From contig PMDS01000031.1 of assembly GCA_003155655.1 (NCBI GenBank), positions 1 through 42,972 on the forward strand: a DNA stretch of 42,972 nucleotides. The letters run 5' to 3'. The position numbers were made by a program, and so were the translations under genes. Origin of the DNA: Melioribacter sp. GTDB taxonomy: Bacteria; Bacteroidota; Ignavibacteria; Ignavibacteriales; Melioribacteraceae. Positions 10,550 through 26,143 of the stretch are shown in pieces. The notes under the pieces were generated by a model. That model made no database searches. It was given only the letters and a program-made list of their open reading frames with translations, and was not told the origin of the DNA. The stretch's first letter is position 1; each line of letters begins with the position of its first letter.

Positions 10550-10912
10550 TCACCGCCGTGGTAACCCAAAAACCTTAATGAGAGATTCATCTATTGCCTC
10601 AAGCAGCCGGTCAGAAATTTTACCTCTTATCTGTACTAATCTAAGAGTATGATCTATTGGCCTTGTCTGCAAACAATCCGCGATTGATTTTTTTGTTAAT
10701 CCGTTTTCTGCTGCGGGTTCTATTTCAACATTAGTTATTATTAACGCTTTCTTTTCACTCCATGCGGTAATTGGCACTACCTGTATAACCGGTACTCTTG
10801 CGTTATAAATATCATTGGTTACAACAATGCAGGGTCTTATTTTACCGGTTTCAGATCCCAATGCCGGATCAAGATTAATAACTATAACCATTCCCCGTTT
10901 CAATTCCGTCAT
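10550..10912 (-). CDS. mazF: MazF/PemK-family toxin (endoribonuclease)
   Basis: 120 residues from the ATG at 10912, which overlaps the antitoxin's stop as ATGA; a GTG nine bases upstream is also in frame but less likely. The fold signature is clear: KRGMVIVINLDPALGSETGK then IRPCIVVTND, the beta-barrel start with the RP motif, then VVPITAW and a C-terminal helix (LEAIDESLIKVFGL). MazF toxins cut single-stranded mRNA at short sequences when the labile antitoxin is lost. Translational coupling to the upstream antitoxin is expected from the overlap. A truncated duplicate lies at 8831-9077 and a clpB tail directly follows. Confidence 0.9.
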   Translation of the reverse strand: MTELKRGMVIVINLDPALGSETGKIRPCIVVTNDIYNARVPVIQVVPITAWSEKKALIITNVEIEPAAENGLTKKSIADCLQTRPIDHTLRLVQIRGKISDRLLEAIDESLIKVFGLPRR

Positions 10913-11142
10913 TCCGGCCACTCCGTTAAAGCTGAGTTGGTTAAATCCTGAAGTTCAGCATCCTTCGCATAAACTTCGTTATAAAGAACAGCGGATTCTT
11001 TTAATTTTTTGATTTCAAGTTCTTTAATAAAATAGTCGATGGCGTTTCTAACCAACGAACTTTTATCTTTAAAACCGTATGAACTATGGTTATTTAAAAG
11101 ATCTGCATGCTTTTCGTCTACGCTTACTTTAACCTGCTGCAT
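10909..11142 (-). CDS. Ribbon-helix-helix antitoxin paired with MazF
   Basis: 77 residues: an N-terminal strand (MQQVKVSVDEKH) for DNA binding, then helices (KDKSSLVRNAIDYFIKELE) of the ribbon-helix-helix type, and an acidic C-terminal tail (YAKDAELQDLTNSALTEWPE) of the kind that wraps the toxin. The ATG follows AAGGAG at ideal spacing. It precedes mazF with a 4-base overlap, the usual order. RHH antitoxins with MazF toxins (rather than AbrB-type MazE) are well known. It should repress its own operon through the dyads at 11162-11189. Confidence 0.85.
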   Translation of the reverse strand: MQQVKVSVDEKHADLLNNHSSYGFKDKSSLVRNAIDYFIKELEIKKLKESAVLYNEVYAKDAELQDLTNSALTEWPE

Positions 11143-11428: not shown

Positions 11429-12619
11429 ATGAAAATGGCGGAGTATAAAGAACGTCATATTTATTCCGGGTTAAAAGAACATCTCTCAAAAAAACACATA
11501 ACCATAATAACGGGACTTAGACGTACTGGAAAAACCACGATTGTCAAAAAACTTATGGATGATTTTGGATCAAAAAATGCAGCATATTTTGATCTGGAAC
11601 GTATTGACAATAGAGAACTATTTTCTGAAAAAAATTACGACAACATTATAACAGCATTATCTTCAAGGGGATTGAATTTTAAGAAAAAAGTCCTGGTTGC
11701 AATTGATGAAGTACAGCTTTTACCCGGCATAGTAAGTGCTGTTAAATATCTTTATGATAATTACTCGATAAAATTCATTGTAACCGGATCAAGTTCCTAT
11801 TACATTAAAAATTTATTCAGTGAGTCATTAGCGGGCAGGAAAAAAGTATTTGAATTAAATACATTAAATTTTAGAGAATACTTAATCTTTAAAGATCTAG
11901 AATACAAAGCAGCAGAAATAACCGGACGAAAATTTATACCTGCAGAATATGAACGGTTAAAAAAACATTATGAAGATTTTATTAGATATGGCTCATTCCC
12001 GGAGGTAGTTTTGTCAAAGAGCATATCAGATAAAAAAGATATTGTTAATGATATTTTAAATTCTTACTTAAATATTGATATAAAAAACATTTCTGATATA
12101 AGAGATCAAAAAAATCTACACATTCTACTTAAAATGCTGGCATCAAGAGCGGGAACAAGGCTGGATTATTCAAAAATAGCTTCATTAACAGGAATATCCA
12201 GACCCTCGGTGTATAATTACATAGATCTGCTTGAAAACACATTTATTATTACCCGCTTGCCGGTACTTGCTAAGAATCCGGATAGAGAAATTGTTAAAGC
12301 CTCAAAAATATTTATTAATGATAATGGTTTATTAAATCAGCTTGCAGAGGTAAGCAGCGGTGTTCAATTTGAAAATGCTGTTTACAACCAGCTAAAGTTT
12401 TATGGTAAGCTAAAATACTACTCATTAAAAACCGGGAAAGAAATCGATTTTATTTTAAATGATAAAACTGCAATAGAAGTAAAAGAAACCGCAGATGTAA
12501 ATGACCAGCACCAATTGAAACATCTTTGCGAAAAAATTGGTATTAAAAAAAGTATTGTTGCAGGACGCTACCCATCTCCAAAATTTAAGGATTTTGTATG
12601 GGGTGGAGATTTAGGGTAA
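11429..12619 (+). CDS. AAA_14/DUF4143 ATPase
   Basis: 396 residues. The P-loop GLRRTGKTT is at 29-37, Walker B VLVAIDEVQLL near 89-99, and VTGSSS follows as sensor 1, all typical of the AAA_14 domain; the C-terminal half is the DUF4143 region with a winged-helix-like part (GISRPSVYNYIDLLENTFII) and an end, EIDFILNDKTAIEVKE, that resembles a PD-(D/E)xK nuclease core. These ATPases are scattered and numerous in Bacteroidota and archaea, are often mobile, and have no established function. The ATG at 11429 follows AAGG; an ATG two codons later is equally usable. It stands alone on the plus strand behind a palindromic operator array. Confidence 0.85.
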   Translation: MKMAEYKERHIYSGLKEHLSKKHITIITGLRRTGKTTIVKKLMDDFGSKNAAYFDLERIDNRELFSEKNYDNIITALSSRGLNFKKKVLVAIDEVQLLPGIVSAVKYLYDNYSIKFIVTGSSSYYIKNLFSESLAGRKKVFELNTLNFREYLIFKDLEYKAAEITGRKFIPAEYERLKKHYEDFIRYGSFPEVVLSKSISDKKDIVNDILNSYLNIDIKNISDIRDQKNLHILLKMLASRAGTRLDYSKIASLTGISRPSVYNYIDLLENTFIITRLPVLAKNPDREIVKASKIFINDNGLLNQLAEVSSGVQFENAVYNQLKFYGKLKYYSLKTGKEIDFILNDKTAIEVKETADVNDQHQLKHLCEKIGIKKSIVAGRYPSPKFKDFVWGGDLG

Positions 12620-13062: not shown

Positions 13063-15681
13063 TTATTTTTTTGAAAACGTTAATTTACCTGCACCCGGCG
13101 CGTGAATAATGATTGTATCACCGGAATCAAATTTATTCATAAGCAGTTCTGCAGAAAGAGGATTAATAATAAATTTTTGTATTGTTCTCTTAAGAGGACG
13201 CGCGCCGTATGTCACATCGTAACCATGCTGCAATATAAAATCCCTGACATCGGCATCTAGTTCCAGGTGAATATTTTTATCTTCAAGCATCTTTCCAACT
13301 TTCTGAAGCTGGATATCAATTATTTTGATAAGTTCTTCTTTTAAAAGAGGTTTAAATAAAACAATTTCGTCAATACGATTTAAAAATTCCGGGCGTATAG
13401 TTCTTCTTAATAGTTCAGTTAAATTAACACGCAGCTCACCAATTACATTCTCAAAATTTGTTTCATCCATTGTCATCAATTTTTCCTGGATGAGGTGAGA
13501 GCCAAGATTTGACGTCATGATGATTATCGTATTTTTAAAATCAACTGTTCTTCCCTGGTTGTCGGTTAGTCTTCCATCATCAAGAACCTGCAGTAAAATG
13601 TTAAAAACATCCTGGTGTGCTTTTTCAATTTCATCAAGCAGCACTACAGAATAAGGTTTTCTGCGGACAGCTTCTGTTAATTGCCCGCCCTCATCATAGC
13701 CAACGTATCCGGGAGGCGCTCCAATTAAGCGCGAGACTGAAAATTTTTCCATGTACTCGCTCATATCAATTCTAATCAGTGCATGCTCATCATTAAACAA
13801 AAATTCTGCAAGCGCTCTTGCAAGTTCGGTTTTGCCAACACCCGTAGTGCCAATAAAAATAAAAGAACCAATCGGACGGTGCGCATCCTGAAGACCTGCA
13901 CGAGATCTTCTTATTGCGTTGGCAACAGCGCTTACAGCATCATCCTGCCCGATAACTCTATTATGTAATTCATCTTCAAGGCGTAAAAGTTTGTGCCGCT
14001 CACTCTCAAGCATTCTGTTGACGGGAATACCCGTCCATTTTGCAACCACTTCGGCAACATCTTCAGCTTCAACTTCTTCTTTCAACATTTTGGTGTTTAT
14101 TTGTATGGCGGCAAGATCAAGGCTTTCCTGTTTTAATTTCTTTTCCAGCTCGTTTATTGTACCATATCTAATTTCAGCAACCTTTGCCAAATTTCCATCC
14201 CGTTCAAATCTATCTGCATTTATTTTGGCATCCTCGATCTCACTTTTCATTGAACGGATTTTCTGGATCTTTTCTTTCTCAAGCTGCCAATGACTTTTAA
14301 GCCTGCTGTGTTCTTCAGATAGTTCACTTAATTCTTTTTTCAATTCTTCCAGGCGCGAAGCGGAATCGGAATCTTTCTCTCGCTTCAAAGCCTCGCGTTC
14401 AATTTCAAGTTGTTTAACTTTCCGTTCAACTGCATCCAGTTCTTCAGGCATAGAGTCAATTTCAATCCTTAGTTTAGATGCGGCTTCATCGATAAGATCA
14501 ATTGCTTTATCAGGCAGAAAACGGTCGGTTATATAACGGTTCGACAATTGAACGGCAGCAATAATTGCACCATCGGTAATACGCACGCCATGGTGAACTT
14601 CATATTTATCTTTCAGGCCGCGCAAAATTGAAATAGAATCTTCCTCGTTTGGTTCTTCAACAAGTACAGGCTGAAATCTTCTTTCCAGCGCAGCATCCTT
14701 CTCGATATATTTTCTAAATTCATCCAGCGTTGTAGCGCCAATTGCATGGAGTTCTCCTCTAGCAAGAGCAGGCTTTAAAATATTTGCTGCGTCCATAGAA
14801 CCATCTGTTCTTCCGGCGCCTACAAGAAGATGAAGCTCATCAATAAATAGAATTATTTCTCCCTCTGAGTCCTGAACTTCTTTAACAACAGCTTTCAATC
14901 TTTCTTCAAATTGACCCCTGAATTGAGTGCCCGCAACAAGGGCTCCCATGTCCAATGCTATTATGCGTTTTGTTTTTAAAGTTTCGGGAATATCACCGGA
15001 AACAATTCTATGTGCAATTCCTTCTGCAATTGCAGTTTTACCAACTCCGGGTTCACCTATTAGAACTGGATTATTTTTTGTCCTGCGTGAAAGGACCTGA
15101 AGTACACGTCTTATTTCCTCATCTCTTCCTATAACAGGGTCAAGTTTATTAGAACGCGCCAGAGCGTTTAAATCACGTCCATATTTTTGAAGAGCTTGAT
15201 AAGTGTCCTCGGGATTTTGTGTTGTCACTCTTTGAGTGCCGCGAATATCTTTTAGTGCAGATAGAATAACATTTTTATTTATACCGTTATCATTTAAAAG
15301 TTTTCCGGCTGCATTTTTCTCCTGGCTCAACGCAAGGAGAATATGTTCATTGGAGACATATTCATCTTTCAAATTTTTTGTTTCGTCAGAGGATTCATCA
15401 AAAAGTTTTGCAGTAGTAACAGAGAGCTGCTGGTTTCCAATTCCACTGCCTGAAACTTTTGGCAATTTTTCGAGCAGTTCACCAATCTTAATTTTCATCT
15501 GATTTAAATTAGCGCCGACTTTTTGAATAATTGAATATGCAACGTTTGTTTGATCCTGAAGAATTGCCGCAAGAATATGTTCAGGTTCAATAATTTGGTT
15601 CGTATAATTCTGGGCTATTTCAATTGCATTCTGAACAGTCTCTTGAGCCTTTACAGTGAACTTGCTTAAATTAAACTGCAT
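13063..15681 (-). CDS. clpB: ClpB protein disaggregase (Hsp100)
   Basis: 872 residues, full length for ClpB. Order: N-terminal Clp repeat domain (1-145), first AAA+ domain with Walker A GEPGVGKT at 209-216, coiled-coil middle domain (about 410-530, rich in E/K/L) that distinguishes ClpB from ClpA/ClpC, second AAA+ domain with Walker A GTTGVGKT at 611-618, and the C-terminal D2-small domain ending LTFSKK. It threads aggregated proteins together with DnaK. The ATG follows GGTGG. It is divergent from mnmE with a 207 bp shared upstream region in which I see no CIRCE dyad. A diverged copy of its last codons survives at 10467-10533. Confidence 0.97.
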
Positions 15682-19967: not shown

Positions 19968-20015
19968 TAATAATCGTTCAACTATGTACTAAGAAATTAT
20001 ATCTGGTTGTGCTTT

Positions 20016-21137
20016 ATGAATAATACTGCTGAAAAATTTTTACGTTACTTACCAAGCAGGGATATTGTTTTTATTTTTGGGGCAGGAGCATCTCACGCTG
20101 ATGGAGTTCCACTGCAAAAGGATATGCTTCCAATGATTATCTCGGGGAATATTAAAGAGATTGAAAGTTCTGCAATTGGTAAAATTGTAACAGAATTTAT
20201 AAAAGAAAATTTTGAATTCAATCCGTTAACAAATCAGTACCCGCAGCTTGAAGCCGTATTTGGGTTTATTGATTATTTCATTCAGCAAAATGAAAGCCTG
20301 AGTGCAAAGTATACAAATGATATAATTAGGGATATCAAAGAATATCTGATAAAACTTATTCATTATGTTGTGAATCTTAGAACCGACAAGCAAAGCCATT
20401 ATTATCATCTTTTCTGGAAAGCAGTTCAGAAAAGAAGTTCAAACATTTCAATAATTACACTTAACTACGATACTCTTCTTGAACAAGCATTTGATTTCCT
20501 ATTTAAAAATCATGGTTATATTGATTACTGTATACAATTTATGAACTATGAGCGTTCTCCTGAAATGCAGGATTACAATTTTTGGGTGAATCCGCGCGAG
20601 CCTGTTTCTATAATTGAAAATGAAAATCCAATTCCCTATAAAATTATTAAAGTTCATGGCAGCCTTAATTGGAAATATTGCAATTGCTGCAACCAAACAT
20701 TGCTGACGCCGTGGGATAGAAAGATTGACTTAAACCATGGGAAATTTCTTGGTTATACTTATCCGGATAATCAAGAATATGAATTTCACTGCCCGATTGA
20801 TGGAACTGAATTCCAGACATTGATAATGCCCCCTACTTACTTGAAGACAATACATCAGCAAATTATTTCCCAGTTACTTGCAGAGGCGTCACGCGAGATA
20901 AGAATTGCAAAAAAGATTGTCTTTATTGGTTATTCCCTTTCCAGTTCTGATGTTCATATAAAAGCATTACTGAAAAAACAAATCAATCCCGATAAAGAAA
21001 TAATTGTAATCAATCCCAAACAGAAAGAGTCACTAGAGTTGAATTACAAATCCCTGAATAAAAATGTGAAATTTATTTACACGAATTTTGAAGAATTTGT
21101 AAATAATGAACAGGAATTGGATTCTATATTTTTTTAA
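20016..21137 (+). CDS. SIR2-like domain protein, possible defence NADase
   Basis: 373 residues from the ATG at 20016 (a TTG three codons earlier is also in frame). SIR2-fold landmarks are all present: FIFGAGASHADG (GAGxS, 20-31) for NAD binding, TLNYDTLLEQAF with N150 and D152, KVHGSLNW with the catalytic-type H214, a zinc-ribbon-like Cys cluster (C-N-C-C at 222-225 and a later HCP), and FIGYSLSSSDVHIKALL. SIR2-like proteins of this class are common in anti-phage systems such as Thoeris, DSR and SIR2-HerA, where they destroy NAD, and also occur alone. It sits next to a restriction-like operon, which supports a defence role by context only. No effector partner such as HerA or Argonaute is adjacent. 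Confidence 0.75.
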   Translation: MNNTAEKFLRYLPSRDIVFIFGAGASHADGVPLQKDMLPMIISGNIKEIESSAIGKIVTEFIKENFEFNPLTNQYPQLEAVFGFIDYFIQQNESLSAKYTNDIIRDIKEYLIKLIHYVVNLRTDKQSHYYHLFWKAVQKRSSNISIITLNYDTLLEQAFDFLFKNHGYIDYCIQFMNYERSPEMQDYNFWVNPREPVSIIENENPIPYKIIKVHGSLNWKYCNCCNQTLLTPWDRKIDLNHGKFLGYTYPDNQEYEFHCPIDGTEFQTLIMPPTYLKTIHQQIISQLLAEASREIRIAKKIVFIGYSLSSSDVHIKALLKKQINPDKEIIVINPKQKESLELNYKSLNKNVKFIYTNFEEFVNNEQELDSIFF

Positions 21138-22060
21138 TTTTTATTTTTAGTCAGCTCATCATACGTTTTTTCTAAATTCATTTTTTTCAATCCTGCTCTC
21201 ATTTCTTTCAAATCTTTAAATCCCGGAATTTCATCTGCCAGCGCAATTTGTTCTTTTGTTCTGCCCTTTTTAATTTCATTTGAAACAAAATCCACCAATG
21301 CAGAAATGTAATCTTTCATTAAGTTAACATCCTGCATGGAGCCTGTTACAAATTCATTTGTTATGCCATGACCAAAAATAAAGAGCGTTTCCTTTGAATA
21401 ATATTTAATAACCTTTTCTAAAACATTAATCCAGTTTACAACAGAGCCGCCCCCGGCAAGATCTATATATGGAAAAGTTCTGTTGAATACAAGATCGCCA
21501 ACGTGGGCAATGTTTAGGCTTTCGAAATGGATAACAGAATCTCCGCCGGTATGGGCAGGACTAAAATATTTTGCAGTAATTTTCTCTTTACCCAAAATAG
21601 CAGACCACTCATCTTTAAAAGTTGTGTCAGCATATACTTGTGGTTTGCCGGGATCATTTCCATAACTTTTTTTCTGAAGTTCAATACAATTTTCATGTGC
21701 CACTATTTTTGCAGTATAATTTTTTAAATAAACATTTCCGGGAGTATGGTCGCCATGATGATGAGTGTTGAAAAGTAAATCAATTTTGCGGGGTGTAATT
21801 TTTTGCAGGGATGCTGTAAAGTTTTTTGCTGTGTCCGGAAATTGAGAATCAACAACCACCACGGCATCGCTTGAAGCAAGCCAGGCAATAGTTCCTCCGC
21901 GTTCAATGTAAATACCGAAATTATCCCGCAGGGTAATAAAACCTTCTGTCTTTTCTTGCAGCTGTCCCAGGATATTGCTGCTCTTTAAAATAATTCCTCC
22001 TGCAGCAAGGGTACAGGCTTTTAAAAAATCCTTACGTGAAATACTCATATAATTATTCAT
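21134..22060 (-). CDS. Exported metallo-beta-lactamase-fold hydrolase
   Basis: 308 residues. The zinc motif NTHHHGDHTPGN, the later PAHTGGDS and the last GHG are the metal ligands of the MBL fold. The N-terminus SISRKDFLKACTLAAGGIIL resembles a twin-arginine signal but has RK rather than RR, so export route is uncertain (Tat-like or Sec). Proteins of this shape hydrolyse various esters, lactones or lactams; the substrate cannot be told. A start at the fifth codon (MSISRKDF) is possible. The gene ends tail-to-tail with the SIR2 gene, overlapping it by 4 bp, an arrangement that suggests compaction rather than shared expression. Confidence 0.8.
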   Translation of the reverse strand: MNNYMSISRKDFLKACTLAAGGIILKSSNILGQLQEKTEGFITLRDNFGIYIERGGTIAWLASSDAVVVVDSQFPDTAKNFTASLQKITPRKIDLLFNTHHHGDHTPGNVYLKNYTAKIVAHENCIELQKKSYGNDPGKPQVYADTTFKDEWSAILGKEKITAKYFSPAHTGGDSVIHFESLNIAHVGDLVFNRTFPYIDLAGGGSVVNWINVLEKVIKYYSKETLFIFGHGITNEFVTGSMQDVNLMKDYISALVDFVSNEIKKGRTKEQIALADEIPGFKDLKEMRAGLKKMNLEKTYDELTKNKN

Positions 22061-22156: not shown

Positions 22157-22810
22157 TCAAATGAAATTAAACATTAAATGATATAGTCTCAATGGAAACC
22201 CATCTTCAGTTTTATGTACTGAGCTAAAATGAAATTCGAAATTTTGGATAAAATGTTCTTGGGTTAGAAAAGATACAGTTTTAATACTACCAAAATTATT
22301 CTCTAGAAGGTAATTTATATTCCCCACATTTTTGGTAATGTCAATTGATTCAACAATAAAACCAATCATACCATTTACTTTATAAAAGGATGAATAGAAA
22401 CCTGATGTAAATCTTTGAATTCCATTTGCGATATATTTGTAATTTAATCCAGAACTGCCTCTTTGTGCTTTTCTGCCAAGTCGTTTACATTCTATAAGGT
22501 AATATTCATTTTGATTATAAAATGTATTAGGGGAAAATACTCTTATGTCAGTTCTTCCTAATGAAGTAGTTTCTGGAACTTCTGGTAGGATGAAATATTC
22601 TAACTTAATAATTCTTTTGATCTTTGAGTTATTTAAATACTTGTTTACTAAAATATCACGAATACCATTCTCATCATTTAAGGGCACGACAATTTTATCT
22701 TTTCTTAATAAATAATAACATAAAGTAATTTTTTCAAGAATATCTCTAAACTCACTTGAATAAATTGAATCATTATACAAGAAGTTTGATGCATCTAACT
22801 CATTCTCCAA
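22157..22810 (-). CDS. Candidate PD-(D/E)xK nuclease, third gene of a restriction-like operon
   Basis: 217 residues from a TTG at 22810, chosen because GGAAGGAG precedes it at 8 bases and it overlaps the methyltransferase by only 11 bp; in-frame ATGs at 22861 and 22843 would give up to 234 residues. I recognise no named family. The segment GRTDIRVFSPNTF...YYLIECKRLG has the D-(about 18 residues)-ExK spacing of PD-(D/E)xK nucleases, and FYSSFYKVNGMIGFIVESI continues the likely alpha/beta core. Placed last after a regulator and a DNA methyltransferase, it is most simply the restriction endonuclease subunit. The function is inferred from motif and context. Confidence 0.6.
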   Translation of the reverse strand: MENELDASNFLYNDSIYSSEFRDILEKITLCYYLLRKDKIVVPLNDENGIRDILVNKYLNNSKIKRIIKLEYFILPEVPETTSLGRTDIRVFSPNTFYNQNEYYLIECKRLGRKAQRGSSGLNYKYIANGIQRFTSGFYSSFYKVNGMIGFIVESIDITKNVGNINYLLENNFGSIKTVSFLTQEHFIQNFEFHFSSVHKTEDGFPLRLYHLMFNFI

Positions 22811-25800
22811 TGTAATTTCTCCTTCCTGTTTTGAGAATAGCATCCATGAACTCATCAACATCAAGATATCCTATTGCTTTGTGCCATAACCTTTTTTCAT
22901 TCGGTTTAAATATGTAAAAGAAGTCTTTTTCAAAACCACGCAGGTCTTTTTGAACAAAGAGTTTATCTGTAATTTTCTGGGAAGATAGTCTGATTGCAGT
23001 TTTTAATAAATCGTTTTTTGATTTATTAAGCCATGCTATTGAATTCGGTTTTCCTGTTTTGGGAACAACCCTAAAAAACATTCCTATTACTTGTTTAGAA
23101 TACCATATTTCAGAAATAAATTTATTCTTCTTTGTATCTAATGATTTTGAAAAGCGATTTATAAATATATCAGCATAAGCTTTTAATGCCTCGTCTTTAA
23201 AATTGAATTGATTAAATAATTCTGTTGTTGATTGTTGGTCTCTGGTTATTATTGAACGGACAATATTCAAGGCGAAATCAATCAGGGCATATTCTTTATC
23301 ATCTAAATTTAAAGATTTAAATATTTCATTATCAATTTCAGCAAAATTATTTTGTACCTCGTTATTTAAGGTTTCAATCATATACTCATCAACTAGGGTT
23401 TTTTTCATCTCTTGATTAATTTGCTTTTTAAGTTTTTCAATGTTTGAAACAAATGACTCTAATTCGCAATCTATAAAGGGAATTGAAAATTTATTGTAAT
23501 TTTGTGCTTGTTCGCGTTCTATACCGATAGATGCGAATGTGTTTATTGCTAAATATGAATATAAATTAGAATAGAATAATGCAGAAATTTTAGCAAGTAA
23601 ATTTCTATTATTGGTAACTGACTTAATTGAAGTTATCCCATCTTTGAAAATTAAATTTTTATCTGATATTGCAGAAGAAGTTTTTAATAGTTTAGTGTCT
23701 AATCCTTTTTTTACTAGTAGCATTGGAGCCGTATATATTCGCTTATCTTTAACAAGATCAACTTTATCGAACTCAATACTCCCCTTTAAGGAATAGTCGA
23801 TAAACATAACTTGTATGGAATCGGATTTTATTAAGTCCAGATTTTTAATCGAGATTGTATTTTTAGGTGGATCGACTGTAAAACTTCTTGAATGAATACC
23901 TGTACTAACTACAAATTTATTATTATCTATAAGTTCACCAATTGTAATGTATTCATTTCTTAATTTAGTAATAAAATTAAAATCTAAATAAGAACCGTAG
24001 ACGAGCACTTTCCATAACCAATCAAATTCTTTTAATCTTTTTTGCTTTATTTCCTTTATGTCGCTTCTACTTATTGAAAAGATTTTGAATAAACTAAAAA
24101 AACGACTTGGTTGTAAAGTTATATGTTCAATTACAGTATTATCTGTATTTTCTCCATGTGCGTATTTATAGAATATTATTGCTGTTGGAGCAATAGAAGG
24201 ATCATGAGATTTATTGAATACTTCTTTTCTAACAGGCGCAAGCTCAAATACTTTGTTAATATAAAATTCCTCTGTCCAATAATTCCTAAATGGGCTTCTG
24301 ACAGTGTTATAGCCTAAATTATACAGAATACTGCTTCTAACAAGCAATGCAATTTGTGTGTATGGCTTTGTAAAATCACTAACTCTTAAAACAAACCCCT
24401 CAGCAATCTCTCCGTTATTTACGGCTATTGAATATTTTTTGTTCTTTTCTTTTTTCTTTCGATCTTTAAGATATTGTTTACCAAGAGTGTCCATTCCATT
24501 TCCTTTCCATGGTGGATTCCCAATAATGAAACTAAATTCTTTAATTTTTAACAAGTCATTATATTCGTGTTTTATGTCAAAGAAATCGGCTTCAAAAAAA
24601 TTAGTCTTTAATAATTTAGGAAACCGGAATGTTTCTATGCTAGATGGTTTTTGATAATCCAAAAGAGTTAATTGTATCGAAAATATTGCAACTTGAATTG
24701 CAGAAAGATTTTTATCTAAACCAAAAATATTATCTAGAGCTAATTGCCTAAGCATTTCTTTAAAATCTTTAGAATCTTTTTTAACCATGGGATGTAAATA
24801 AATATAGCGTTCAATTATTTTGCGTAAAGTCTCTACCAGAAAAATCCCTGAACCACAAGCAGGGTCAAGTACCTTGCAATTATACTCTTTTGGATTGTCT
24901 AATAAGTATTTCTCAATCGTCTCATTAAGAATATAATCTACTAAAAAAAGTGGCGTATAATAAACACCCTCTTCAGCTTGATTACGTTCTCCAATAAATG
25001 ATTCGTAAACGTTACTTATGAATTCAATCGGAATAATAGAAAAATCATAAAGTTTAAACAAGGATTTTTGTCCGTTCCCTAGATCATCCTCATTGAGCAA
25101 ACTGATAACTGTATTTAATGAATCCTGCTGAATTTTGTGGTAATCAGAATCATCCAAATAAAACATGTCCCCATTGAACTTTTTCTCTAAATATTTAAAA
25201 AACTTAACAGCAAGCTTCTGATTTGACAACACTGAACAAAAATCATCATTTGACCAGTATTTTTCTTTGTCAAATCCGATTTTTACTTTACGGTCGATGA
25301 GATATCTTACAAAGATTACTTTTCCAATTAAGGCATTTGCAATATTTGGTTTAACATTATTTTTTGAGATTAAAATTTTTCTAGCAATCTTTATATTTTC
25401 TAATAAATGAAAATCAACCCTGCTTTCATATTTAAGGCTAGATTGATATTTATCCCATGTTTTACCGCTAACAATTTCAAAATAGTTAAAATCATTTATA
25501 TTATTATTGCTTGCAATTTGTTCTAAAGAACTTTTTTCTTCTAAATAGTGATAACCATTAAAAATTTCAACAATAGCCTTATATGCAAAAATAATAATTG
25601 GAGATTCATTGGAATTCCACAATGCTTTGTGTATTCTCTCTTTTTCTTTTGGTGTATCGTAAAAAAGTATTAATGGTTTGTGGTCAAAGACAAAAAAAGC
25701 ATCAGGTTTAAGCTTGTCTTTTATTAATCTTCCAACTCTGCTGGTGAACTGACATTCCTTTTGCCATAAATTCTCAGAAGTAATAAAAAGACCATTCGCT

Positions 25801-25844
25801 TTATTTATTCCCAAAGTTTTAAATATTCCTAGAAGATTTTTCAT
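22800..25844 (-). CDS. Large N6-adenine-type DNA methyltransferase (Eco57I-like), restriction-modification
   Basis: 1014 residues. The SAM motif DPACGSG is at 327-333 and the catalytic motif NPPW at 443-446, the order of gamma-class N6-adenine methyltransferases. The first 300 residues, with FVFDHKPLILFYD and GERNQAEEGVYYTPLFLVDY just before the methylase core, resemble Eco57I/PglX-type enzymes; the region after about 600 (FVVSTGIHSRSF, later helices) is a plausible target-recognition part. I see no clear nuclease motif in the N-terminus, in line with a separate nuclease encoded next. The ATG overlaps the regulator's stop as ATGA. An individual R-M methylase is likely; BREX or DISARM partners are absent. 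Confidence 0.85.
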   Translation of the reverse strand: MKNLLGIFKTLGINKANGLFITSENLWQKECQFTSRVGRLIKDKLKPDAFFVFDHKPLILFYDTPKEKERIHKALWNSNESPIIIFAYKAIVEIFNGYHYLEEKSSLEQIASNNNINDFNYFEIVSGKTWDKYQSSLKYESRVDFHLLENIKIARKILISKNNVKPNIANALIGKVIFVRYLIDRKVKIGFDKEKYWSNDDFCSVLSNQKLAVKFFKYLEKKFNGDMFYLDDSDYHKIQQDSLNTVISLLNEDDLGNGQKSLFKLYDFSIIPIEFISNVYESFIGERNQAEEGVYYTPLFLVDYILNETIEKYLLDNPKEYNCKVLDPACGSGIFLVETLRKIIERYIYLHPMVKKDSKDFKEMLRQLALDNIFGLDKNLSAIQVAIFSIQLTLLDYQKPSSIETFRFPKLLKTNFFEADFFDIKHEYNDLLKIKEFSFIIGNPPWKGNGMDTLGKQYLKDRKKKEKNKKYSIAVNNGEIAEGFVLRVSDFTKPYTQIALLVRSSILYNLGYNTVRSPFRNYWTEEFYINKVFELAPVRKEVFNKSHDPSIAPTAIIFYKYAHGENTDNTVIEHITLQPSRFFSLFKIFSISRSDIKEIKQKRLKEFDWLWKVLVYGSYLDFNFITKLRNEYITIGELIDNNKFVVSTGIHSRSFTVDPPKNTISIKNLDLIKSDSIQVMFIDYSLKGSIEFDKVDLVKDKRIYTAPMLLVKKGLDTKLLKTSSAISDKNLIFKDGITSIKSVTNNRNLLAKISALFYSNLYSYLAINTFASIGIEREQAQNYNKFSIPFIDCELESFVSNIEKLKKQINQEMKKTLVDEYMIETLNNEVQNNFAEIDNEIFKSLNLDDKEYALIDFALNIVRSIITRDQQSTTELFNQFNFKDEALKAYADIFINRFSKSLDTKKNKFISEIWYSKQVIGMFFRVVPKTGKPNSIAWLNKSKNDLLKTAIRLSSQKITDKLFVQKDLRGFEKDFFYIFKPNEKRLWHKAIGYLDVDEFMDAILKTGRRNYIGE

Positions 25845-26074
25845 TTTGCTTCCTGGAATTCATGTAAAATATTTTTTGGTGCAATAAGATCTCTTACATC
25901 AACATTTAAAATATTTGCAATTTCTCCAAGAGTATCCAATGTTGGTTGAACTTTATTTGTACACCATCTTGAAATGGTTGTCTGATCTCTTCCAATTTTT
26001 TCAGCTAACCATTTATTCGTTTTCTCTTTTTCAGCGAGTATTACTTTTATTCTATTTTTAGTCTTTAAATTCAT
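25841..26074 (-). CDS. XRE-family regulator (controller-like) of the restriction operon
   Basis: 77 residues with one Cro/CI-type helix-turn-helix: NKWLAEKIGRDQTTISRWCT then PTLDTLGEIANILNVDVRDL, the full HTH_3 pattern. It is first in the three-gene unit and overlaps the methyltransferase start by 4 bp. Small XRE proteins in this position act as controller (C) proteins that time methylase before nuclease expression; that role is inferred. The direct repeat AAATGC at 26109-26114 and 26123-26128, next to the predicted -10, is a candidate binding site. Confidence 0.85.
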   Translation of the reverse strand: MNLKTKNRIKVILAEKEKTNKWLAEKIGRDQTTISRWCTNKVQPTLDTLGEIANILNVDVRDLIAPKNILHEFQEAK

Positions 26075-26114
26075 ATTTATTAGCCTATACCTTCAAGTAA
26101 TTAGCACCAAATGC

Positions 26115-26143
26115 AATTTATGAAATGCTCCTTTTTATGTCAA
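26115..26143 (-). promoter_or_regulatory. Sigma70-type promoter for the XRE-methyltransferase operon
   Basis: On the minus strand TTGACA (26143-26138) and TAAATT (26120-26115) are separated by 17 bp, 40 bp before the regulator ATG. AAATGC direct repeats, 14 bp apart, flank the -10 element. Confidence 0.45.

What the first reader, a model, noticed from the sequence alone, without database searches (positions are those of the whole stretch)
22157..26143. Overlapping regulator-methyltransferase-nuclease unit, possible undescribed restriction variant
A 77-residue XRE protein, a 1014-residue N6-adenine-type methyltransferase and a 217-residue protein with a D...ExK core overlap head to tail. Separate small nuclease plus large Eco57I-like methylase is not the usual single-chain type IIG layout, nor BREX or DISARM. 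Overlaps suggest strict co-expression with C-protein timing.
Basis: partly seen in the sequence, partly recalled or inferred. Interest (0 to 1): 0.6.

Follow-up and report, generated by a model that had tools for sequence, protein, structure and literature searches.

The report
Restriction enzyme with a detached cutter
This is a DNA-tagging enzyme whose built-in DNA-cutting domain appears to have lost its active site, next to a small separate gene that keeps an intact-looking cutting site, and the same two-gene pairing recurs in distant bacteria where databases mostly label the second gene as having no known function.

Summary
In detail: XRE, 1014-aa adenine methyltransferase (MT) and 217-aa protein overlap head to tail. 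The small protein is very probably a PD-(D/E)xK nuclease: in 29 aligned partners E47 and D88 are invariant, E107 and K109 kept in 28. The conserved unit is the pair, not the triplet: 14 of 15 strong MT matches in 395 genomes have the small gene next door; the fifteenth ends at a contig edge. The MT is IIG-like, but its N-terminal domain, which weakly matches nuclease folds, lacks E-x-K in 27 of 27 such rows. Four relatives with an intact N-terminal D..ExK have no partner match. Nuclease identity follows the MT scaffold, not clearly its recognition region. Best reading: a split IIG-like R-M enzyme; the MT finds the site, a generic nuclease docks and cuts. C-protein timing is not supported. Two of six sister genomes examined carry C5-methyltransferase modules beside the same gene. 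Ten paper searches found no description; REBASE was not available. No activity is shown.

The parts
25841..26074 (-). XRE/Cro-type regulator, 77 aa; optional part of the unit
   Evidence: HTH_26 4.5e-11, HTH_3 3.3e-9. Nearest relatives among the loci searched are XRE leaders of Bacteroidota type III operons, 38.4-43.5 bits; next best found in its own genome 18.7 bits
22800..25844 (-). Gamma-type N6-adenine DNA methyltransferase with its own target-recognition region, 1014 aa
   Evidence: Pfam N6_Mtase and MmeI_Mtase; PADLOC PDLC03603 1109.7 bits; eight relatives 47-56% identical in Bacteroidota contigs
25461..25844 (-). MT residues 1-128: domain with a probable PD-(D/E)xK-like fold but no E-x-K (pseudo-nuclease, possible docking domain)
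   Evidence: VIA-align rows confined to residues 1-135: Hjc 4tkd and 1hh1 Z 5.0, 2eo0 Z 4.7, RecU 5fdk Z 4.1, 1rzn Z 3.9 (low-confidence model); no ExK in the third strand of 27 of 27 rows (26 with a partner seen plus L050 at a contig end)
24846..24866 (-). SAM-binding motif DPACGSG (MT residues 327-333)
   Evidence: read; invariant in 9 of 9
24507..24518 (-). Catalytic motif NPPW (MT residues 443-446)
   Evidence: read; invariant in 9 of 9
23265..23927 (-). Presumed target-recognition region (MT residues 640-860), most variable part
   Evidence: mean pairwise identity per 40-residue window 35-55% here against 60-91% elsewhere, 8 sequences
22845..22964 (-). MT residues 961-1000, most conserved window of the MT; candidate nuclease-contact or scaffold element
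   Evidence: 90.5% mean pairwise identity, 8 sequences
22157..22810 (-). Small PD-(D/E)xK-type nuclease, 217 aa, TTG start
   Evidence: E47, D88, E107-C-K109 conserved; AlphaFold pLDDT 79, pTM 0.81; weak Pfam PDDEXK_9 in 6 of 9 family members, best E 2.4e-4, none to the window protein itself; VIA-align top row BglII Z 6.0
22819..22824 (-). Ribosome-binding site AAGGAG of the nuclease gene, inside the MT gene
   Evidence: read
22484..22492 (-). Codons of E107-C108-K109 in the nuclease; D88 lies at 22547-22549, E47 at 22670-22672

Best explanation
A split type-IIG-like restriction-modification enzyme. The 1014-aa protein recognises a specific DNA sequence with its recognition region and methylates an adenine in it (inferred from its family). 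Its N-terminal domain appears to keep the fold but not the active site of the nuclease domain that single-chain IIG enzymes carry there. The cutting is supplied in trans by the 217-aa PD-(D/E)xK protein, made from the overlapping gene by probable translational coupling, which docks on the conserved scaffold (N-terminal pseudo-nuclease, helical and C-terminal parts) and cuts when the bound site is unmethylated. Because specificity lies in the MT, recognition regions can be exchanged without changing the cutter. Shown here: gene layout, conservation of the pair, nuclease motif, missing E-x-K in the MT, cis-or-trans pattern, co-variation with scaffold. Inferred: docking, cleavage, restriction of phage. 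The XRE is an optional local regulator.
For: (1) Linkage: 14 of 15 MT matches at E<=1e-30 in 395 phylum genomes have the partner directly downstream, the 15th (L050) reaches a contig end; conversely 11 of 12 genomes with a partner match have the MT next to it (in L048 the partner is broken), the 12th (G271, two stops, by eye a ribosomal-protein region) looks spurious. All 8 true close relatives in genome contigs have it, 7 with a 4-nt overlap. 14 of 23 plasmid loci fetched have it, 12 of the 14 in Alphaproteobacteria; in L154 one ORF lies between, in L075 the MT frame is broken. (2) Catalytic residues: E47 29/29, D88 29/29, E107 28/29, K109 28/29. (3) No E-x-K in the third strand of the MT N-terminal domain in 27 of 27 rows, although the five fold rows confined to that domain are PD-(D/E)xK resolvases. 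(4) Cis or trans: four relatives with an intact N-terminal D..ExK (L145 in this same genome, L076, L157, L161) have no match to the partner profile; no locus clearly had both. (5) Nuclease identity follows the MT N-terminus (rho 0.74, Mantel p 0.009) and C-terminus (0.79, p 0.006), not clearly the recognition region (0.31, p 0.12); L031/L037: recognition region 28%, nuclease 70%; L035/L037: 66% and 48%. (6) Two of six sister genomes examined carry C5-methyltransferase modules beside the same neighbour gene; in L081 the window's YCII gene follows on the far side.
Against: No activity, complex or methylation motif is shown. Fold matches are weak: nuclease best Z 6.0 (under 8) with unrelated rows close behind, Foldseek alone found nothing at E<=0.001, Pfam hits lie below the curated cut-off; the MT model is poor (pLDDT 49.9), so 'pseudo-nuclease' rests on a low-confidence domain. 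hhalign found no sequence kinship between the MT N-terminus and the nuclease. A weak residual link between nuclease and recognition region remains (partial rho 0.39, p 0.09 with 9 taxa, 0.04 with 11), and the taxa are few and related. Some distant MTs (L159, L160) have neither an N-terminal D..ExK hit nor a partner match; L155, L156, L158 were not resolved (L156 is followed by a 231-aa ORF that the profile does not match); L157 and L161, counted as cis forms, are followed by same-strand ORFs of 256 and 249 aa that the profile does not match. The D..ExK pattern search also hit L147 and L150, at places I judged by eye to be outside the third strand.
Confidence: 0.62

Rival explanations
1. An ordinary type II system: the small protein is an independent, sequence-specific restriction enzyme (type IIP/IIH-like) that recognises the same site as the unusually large methyltransferase.
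For: 217 aa is a usual size for such enzymes (general knowledge); top fold rows include BglII, MunI, EcoRV; separate R and M genes are the type II norm.
Against: The nuclease is one recognisable family from Bacteroidota to Proteobacteria and does not clearly co-vary with the recognition region; type IIP enzymes of different specificity are usually unrelated (general knowledge). It would not explain why relatives with an intact N-terminal nuclease lack a partner match.
Confidence: 0.2
2. Guard or back-up effector: the MT works like BREX PglX in marking self, and the nuclease is an abortive effector released when a phage protein blocks or titrates the MT.
For: The MT model aligns with BrxX/PglX (Z 8.0-10.5, mostly at rmsd 12-15); PD-(D/E)xK back-up effectors are described for BREX loci (PMC12839542, passages).
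Against: No PglZ or BrxC among 13 neighbour ORFs scanned; M.BseCI and CamA score higher than BrxX; the pair recurs without those genes being noticed beside it in the loci listed.
Confidence: 0.1
3. Cargo or dependent module of a type III system: MT and nuclease act with Mod/Res, and the window copy is a remnant.
For: In 6 of 8 close relatives type III genes, by reading, flank the pair on one or both sides (L030, L032, L033, L034, L035, L037; Mod and Res of L030 confirmed by Pfam); L031 keeps an XRE and a 57-aa Mod remnant; the window XRE resembles those leaders.
Against: None of 30 other type III loci shows the pair (L116 had no Mod, L119 and L123 were cut short), while 21 of the 25 with Mod followed by Res hold other genes between; in more distant hosts the pair lies without Mod/Res being seen.
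Confidence: 0.05
4. Orphan regulatory methyltransferase beside a modification-dependent (type IV) or housekeeping nuclease.
For: No biochemical data exclude it.
Against: Overlapping genes and 14 of 15 linkage fit a two-subunit enzyme better; location at a site where two of six sister genomes carry other methylase modules.
Confidence: 0.03

Closest known systems
Single-chain type IIG/IIL enzymes (Eco57I, MmeI; PADLOC REase_MTase_IIG)
   Same: Size, gamma-type N6A methylase with recognition region behind the catalytic motifs; PADLOC IIG model matches nearly the whole MT; the eight distant relatives scanned match Pfam Eco57I
   Different: [quoted passage not shown] here that domain lacks E-x-K and a separate gene carries it
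BcgI/BsaXI type IIB enzymes (RM + S subunits)
   Same: Multi-subunit type II R-M enzymes with gamma methylase and PD-(D/E)xK
   Different: There the split is RM / S; here it is MS / R. One locus, L154, has methylase (annotated 548 aa, longest ORF 606 aa), a 448-aa ORF and the nuclease (221 aa) apart
Type I R-M (HsdR/M/S)
   Same: Separate restriction subunit that relies on another subunit for specificity
   Different: The cutter is 217 aa with no helicase or ATPase domain found
Haloferax HVO_A0006 / HVO_A0237
   Same: A 219-aa PD-(D/E)xK fragment and an MT lacking that domain, discussed as a possible split IIG (PMC4389544, abstract and passages)
   Different: There a rare fragment beside transposition genes at another place of the same plasmid; here an overlapping gene pair in many hosts and an MT that keeps a degenerate domain
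BspD6I / BstNBI two-subunit enzymes
   Same: Small 186-aa nuclease subunit acting with a large recognising subunit (PMC4081073, passage); the BspD6I small subunit is row 8, Z 4.7
   Different: The large subunit there is itself a nuclease, not a methylase

Membership tests
Type IIG (IIC) restriction-modification enzyme | Cleavage and methylation domains in one chain, R domain at the N-terminus | tested here: not met
   No E-x-K in the third strand of the N-terminal domain in 27 of 27 rows; D..ExK sits in a separate ORF
Type IIG (IIC) restriction-modification enzyme | Gamma-class N6A methylase: SAM motif, then NPPY/F/W, then recognition region | tested here: met
   DPACGSG 327-333, NPPW 443-446, variable region 640-860; Pfam and PADLOC
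Type IIG (IIC) restriction-modification enzyme | SAM-stimulated cleavage at a fixed distance from the site | not testable with these tools
   needs purified protein
PD-(D/E)xK nuclease superfamily (small protein) | D and E-x-K with a helix glutamate, conserved | tested here: met
   E47 29/29, D88 29/29, E107 and K109 28/29
PD-(D/E)xK nuclease superfamily (small protein) | Restriction-endonuclease-like fold | tested here: inconclusive
   VIA-align BglII Z 6.0, rmsd 4.7, 135 aligned; MunI, EcoRV, FokI, McrC Z 4.4-4.8 with unrelated rows (NF45/NF90, acetyl-CoA carboxylase) among them; PDDEXK_9 below cut-off
Classical type II with independent REase | REase recognises the site by itself | tested here: inconclusive
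   Nuclease does not clearly co-vary with the MT recognition region, but no assay
Type I R-M | HsdR with SF2 motor, separate HsdS | tested here: not met
   Small protein: no Pfam family, 217 aa; no HsdR/HsdS family among the 13 neighbours scanned
Type III R-M | Mod and Res subunits | tested here: not met
   None among the 13 neighbours scanned; a type III operon of the genome lies on another contig
BREX | PglZ and BrxC with PglX | tested here: not met
   No such family among the 13 neighbouring ORFs scanned; whole-genome presence not tested
DISARM | DrmA/DrmB/DrmC with methylase | tested here: not met
   No such family among the 13 neighbouring ORFs scanned; whole genome not tested
C-protein-controlled R-M | C protein gene with C-box operators upstream | tested here: inconclusive
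   XRE present, but no direct repeats and only weak AT-rich inverted repeats upstream; regulator slot not conserved

The most novel reading that the evidence does not exclude
A widespread, overlooked architecture of restriction enzyme in which a methylase with a dead N-terminal nuclease domain uses that domain (and its conserved C-terminus) as a dock for one generic nuclease family, so that recognition regions change freely while the cutter stays; single-chain IIG enzymes and these pairs are cis and trans forms of one machine.
Probability: 0.5. Interest if true: 0.72.

Novelty: new variant of a known kind. Interest (0 to 1): 0.56.

Why it matters
Type IIG enzymes are described as having the cutting domain fixed at the N-terminus (PMC3874165, passage), and how fused and separate restriction enzymes arise from one another is a matter of models (PMC6158711, passages and section 20 part 1). 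A methylase with what looks like a vestigial nuclease domain plus a separate conserved nuclease is a natural test case. Practically, the partner gene is annotated 'hypothetical protein' in 13 of the 14 partner-bearing plasmid loci fetched and 'Fis family transcriptional regulator' in the other, L150, so such methylases are probably listed as complete IIG enzymes or orphans. A cutter independent of specificity would also suit engineering of new cleavage sites.

Tried and rejected
Rejected: BREX, DISARM, type I and type III as the family of the window unit (no such genes among 13 neighbours scanned; the 872-aa ORF at 13063-15681 and ORFs outside 10.5-31.9 kb were not scanned). Rejected: the XRE as a defining part. 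Rejected: type III dependence (pair in 0 of 30 other type III loci). Rejected for lack of support: origin of the small nuclease by duplication of the MT N-terminus (hhalign probability 0.1%), though fold-level kinship stays open.

Led nowhere: viral-contig scans with the MT and with both alignments gave one weak fragment or nothing; phage records gave two weak MT matches; PDB sequence search gave only MmeI and a type I subunit for the MT and nothing for the nuclease; Foldseek alone gave no match at E<=0.001 for either model; promoter scan found fewer sites (22) than shuffles (mean 28.5); the ResIII family search of the own genome was too general to help; NCBIfam gave no match to the nuclease, PADLOC none to it or to five other partners scanned, Pfam none to 8 of 10 distant partners and only chance-level rows (E 0.08-0.1) to the other two. 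Ten paper searches listed no description of this pair that I recognised; most papers were seen as listings only. REBASE was not available and may hold it.

Rows dropped: L038 (24% over 185 residues) was not examined; G271 judged spurious; L048 left out of the partner profile; L036, L043, L070, L075, L076 left out of the N-terminal profile; L043 and L070 have no N-terminal coverage; of 84 plasmid records 23 loci were fetched; of 35 genomes with type III Mod matches 29 were fetched as 30 loci. Labels given by eye and by no call: Mod/Res in L032-L037, RecU for 1rzn, PD-(D/E)xK membership of PDB rows, absence of a methylase in L077-L079 and L082.


Full report
What is there. On the minus strand of the window lie, in order, an XRE-type regulator (25841-26074, 77 aa), a DNA methyltransferase, MT (22800-25844, 1014 aa) and a small protein (22157-22810, 217 aa, TTG start). 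XRE and MT overlap by ATGA; MT and the small gene by 11 nt, with AAGGAG 8 nt before the TTG.

What the parts are. MT matches N6_Mtase and MmeI_Mtase and, over nearly its full length, a PADLOC model named type IIG (1109.7 bits). It has DPACGSG, then NPPW, then a variable region, the gamma order. The eight more distant members scanned match Pfam Eco57I. The small protein matches nothing by itself in Pfam, PADLOC, NCBIfam or PDB sequence. But 6 of 9 close family members give weak matches to PDDEXK_9, best 2.4e-4; four of seven proteins matched, below the curated cut-off, over the D..ExK stretch. An AlphaFold model (pLDDT 79, pTM 0.81) gives no Foldseek match at E<=0.001; in the VIA-align second look the top row is BglII (Z 6.0, rmsd 4.7, 135 aligned), with MunI, the BspD6I small subunit, EcoRV, FokI, McrC and others at Z 4.4-4.8, mixed with unrelated rows. 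The strongest evidence is conservation: in an alignment of 29 partners E47 and D88 are kept in 29, E107 and K109 in 28, while identities to the window protein in the whole-genome search run from 24 to 45% (spurious hit left out).

The unit is the pair. In 395 genomes of the phylum, 15 MT matches reach E 1e-30 in 14 genomes; 14 have the partner directly downstream and one ends at a contig edge. Starting instead from the small protein, 12 genomes match; 11 have the MT next to it (one, L048, with a broken partner), and the twelfth looks like a spurious hit. All eight true close relatives in genome contigs have it. In plasmids 84 records match the MT; of 23 loci fetched 14 have the partner, in L154 with one ORF between. 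In 13 of these 14 the partner is annotated as a hypothetical protein, in one (L150) as a Fis regulator. None of the other 11 same-genus genomes searched, some of them incomplete, has an MT match at E 1e-30, so the unit is sporadic.

A missing active site in the methylase, and a cis-or-trans pattern. The MT model is poor overall (pLDDT 49.9), but the N-terminal 128 residues are better, and the five listed rows confined to that part are Holliday-junction resolvases Hjc (4tkd, 1hh1 Z 5.0; 2eo0 Z 4.7) and RecU (5fdk Z 4.1; 1rzn Z 3.9), all PD-(D/E)xK enzymes (membership recalled); BsaXI aligns over a longer range. These Z values are below 8 and may mean only a common arrangement. In the strand where E-x-K should lie, 27 of 27 rows (26 with a partner seen, plus L050) have no E-x-K; the one pattern hit (L035, ENK) lies past the strand. 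The 28th covered row, L076 from an E. coli plasmid, has an intact PD..EAK that the alignment puts outside that window and no partner match. Three others also have an intact N-terminal D..ExK and no partner match: a second MT of this same genome (L145; D..EMK), a Thermus plasmid (L157) and a Halorussus plasmid (L161); the last two are followed by ORFs of 256 and 249 aa that the partner profile does not match. The nine further partner-bearing plasmid loci, L146-L154, show no D..ExK at the third strand by eye, though the pattern hits elsewhere in L147 and L150. No locus clearly had both forms. Against this, L159 and L160 show neither, L155, L156 and L158 were not resolved, and L072 is truncated.

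The cutter follows the scaffold, not clearly the recognition region. Among nine close members, nuclease identity correlates with MT residues 1-130 (rho 0.74, Mantel p 0.009), 131-268 (0.78, p 0.008), 269-460 (0.69, p 0.017) and 900-1014 (0.79, p 0.006), but weakly with 460-624 (0.32, p 0.07) and with the recognition region 640-860 (0.31, p 0.12); adding two taxa gives 0.83, 0.80, 0.78, 0.80, 0.61 and 0.30 (L036 lacks the first 46 residues). Telling pairs: L031/L037, recognition region 28% but nuclease 70%; L035/L037, 66% but 48%; L032/L035, N-terminus 90% and C-terminus 89% but recognition region 27%, as after an exchange of that region, with nuclease 53%. A partial correlation with the recognition region remains (0.39; p 0.09 and 0.04), so independence is not complete.

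Setting. Next to the window unit stands a metallo-beta-lactamase-fold gene. Of six same-genus loci around its homologues, two carry methylase modules beside it: C5-methyltransferase, two ATPases and Vsr in L081, followed by the window's YCII gene, and C5-methyltransferase with unassigned ORFs in L080. No methylase was seen by eye in the other four, two of which (L077, L078) have another gene order. This looks like an exchange site for R-M modules. In 6 of 8 close relatives the pair, by reading, sits beside or inside a type III operon: between XRE-Mod and Res in L030 (with one small extra ORF), L032 and L035, with extra genes in L033 and L037, and at a contig edge in L034; L031 keeps an XRE and a 57-aa Mod remnant (L030 Mod and Res confirmed). 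The window XRE is closer to those leaders (38.4-43.5 bits) than to the next best found in its genome (18.7 bits), so the window unit may descend from such a locus. But none of 30 other type III loci shows the pair, and 21 of the 25 with Mod followed by Res carry other genes between them, so that gap is best seen as a slot for cargo. Regulators vary: XRE in the window, L041 and L072, MerR-like in L075 and L149, none assigned in four others scanned.

Mechanism. The best-supported account is a split IIG-like enzyme: MT reads and methylates the site, the nuclease docks on the MT scaffold and cuts unmethylated sites. The layout, conservation, motif loss and co-variation are shown; docking, cleavage and defence are inferred. 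The main rival is an ordinary type II pair with an independent restriction enzyme.

Novelty. Reviews state that IIG (IIC) enzymes carry both activities in one chain (PMC3874165, PMC4081073, PMC12707154: passages). A split IIG was discussed for Haloferax from two separate loci (PMC4389544: abstract and passages). A Flavobacterium psychrophilum study lists four IIG systems in strain CSF259-93 and describes the group as generally single polypeptides (PMC11837570: passages). Archaeal and BREX surveys (PMC10609329: passages; PMC12839542: abstract, outline and passages) did not show this pair in what I read. Ten paper searches listed no description that I recognised. REBASE was not searchable here, and its curators may already list the partner; I therefore call it a new variant of a known kind.

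Noticed in passing
window 20007-21137 (+): SIR2-like gene (PF13289 7.9e-9; PADLOC SIR2 1.7e-17) close to the R-M unit: candidate second defence gene.
   Followed up: partly
L080 and L081 (same-genus genomes) beside homologues of window 21134-22060: The same neighbour gene is followed by C5-methyltransferase modules (one with Vsr) in two of six same-genus loci examined: a probable chromosomal exchange site for R-M modules.
   Followed up: partly
L115-L144: In 21 of 25 Bacteroidota type III loci with Mod followed by Res, other genes lie between them, as if a standard cargo slot; a DUF4276 gene stands after Mod in L037 too.
   Followed up: partly
L154 3431-7322: Burkholderia glumae plasmid: methylase (annotated 548 aa), separate 448-aa ORF and 221-aa nuclease in a row, a three-gene version of the system.
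   Followed up: no
L048 2237-4148: An IS605-type transposase ORF (OrfB_IS605, Cas12f1-like_TNB) stands between MT and a broken nuclease gene.
   Followed up: partly
L145 1014-3764 (-): The same genome also carries a 916-aa single-chain N6-methylase with intact N-terminal D..EMK and no partner match, a natural control.
   Followed up: partly
nuclease residues H199 and H211 (window 22157-22810, -): Two C-terminal histidines are kept in 27 of 29 and 29 of 29 partners; not part of the PD-(D/E)xK motif as I know it, role unknown.
   Followed up: no
window 10550-10921 (-) and 11429-12619 (+): MazF/PemK-type toxin gene and an AAA_14/DUF4143 ATPase gene.
   Followed up: no
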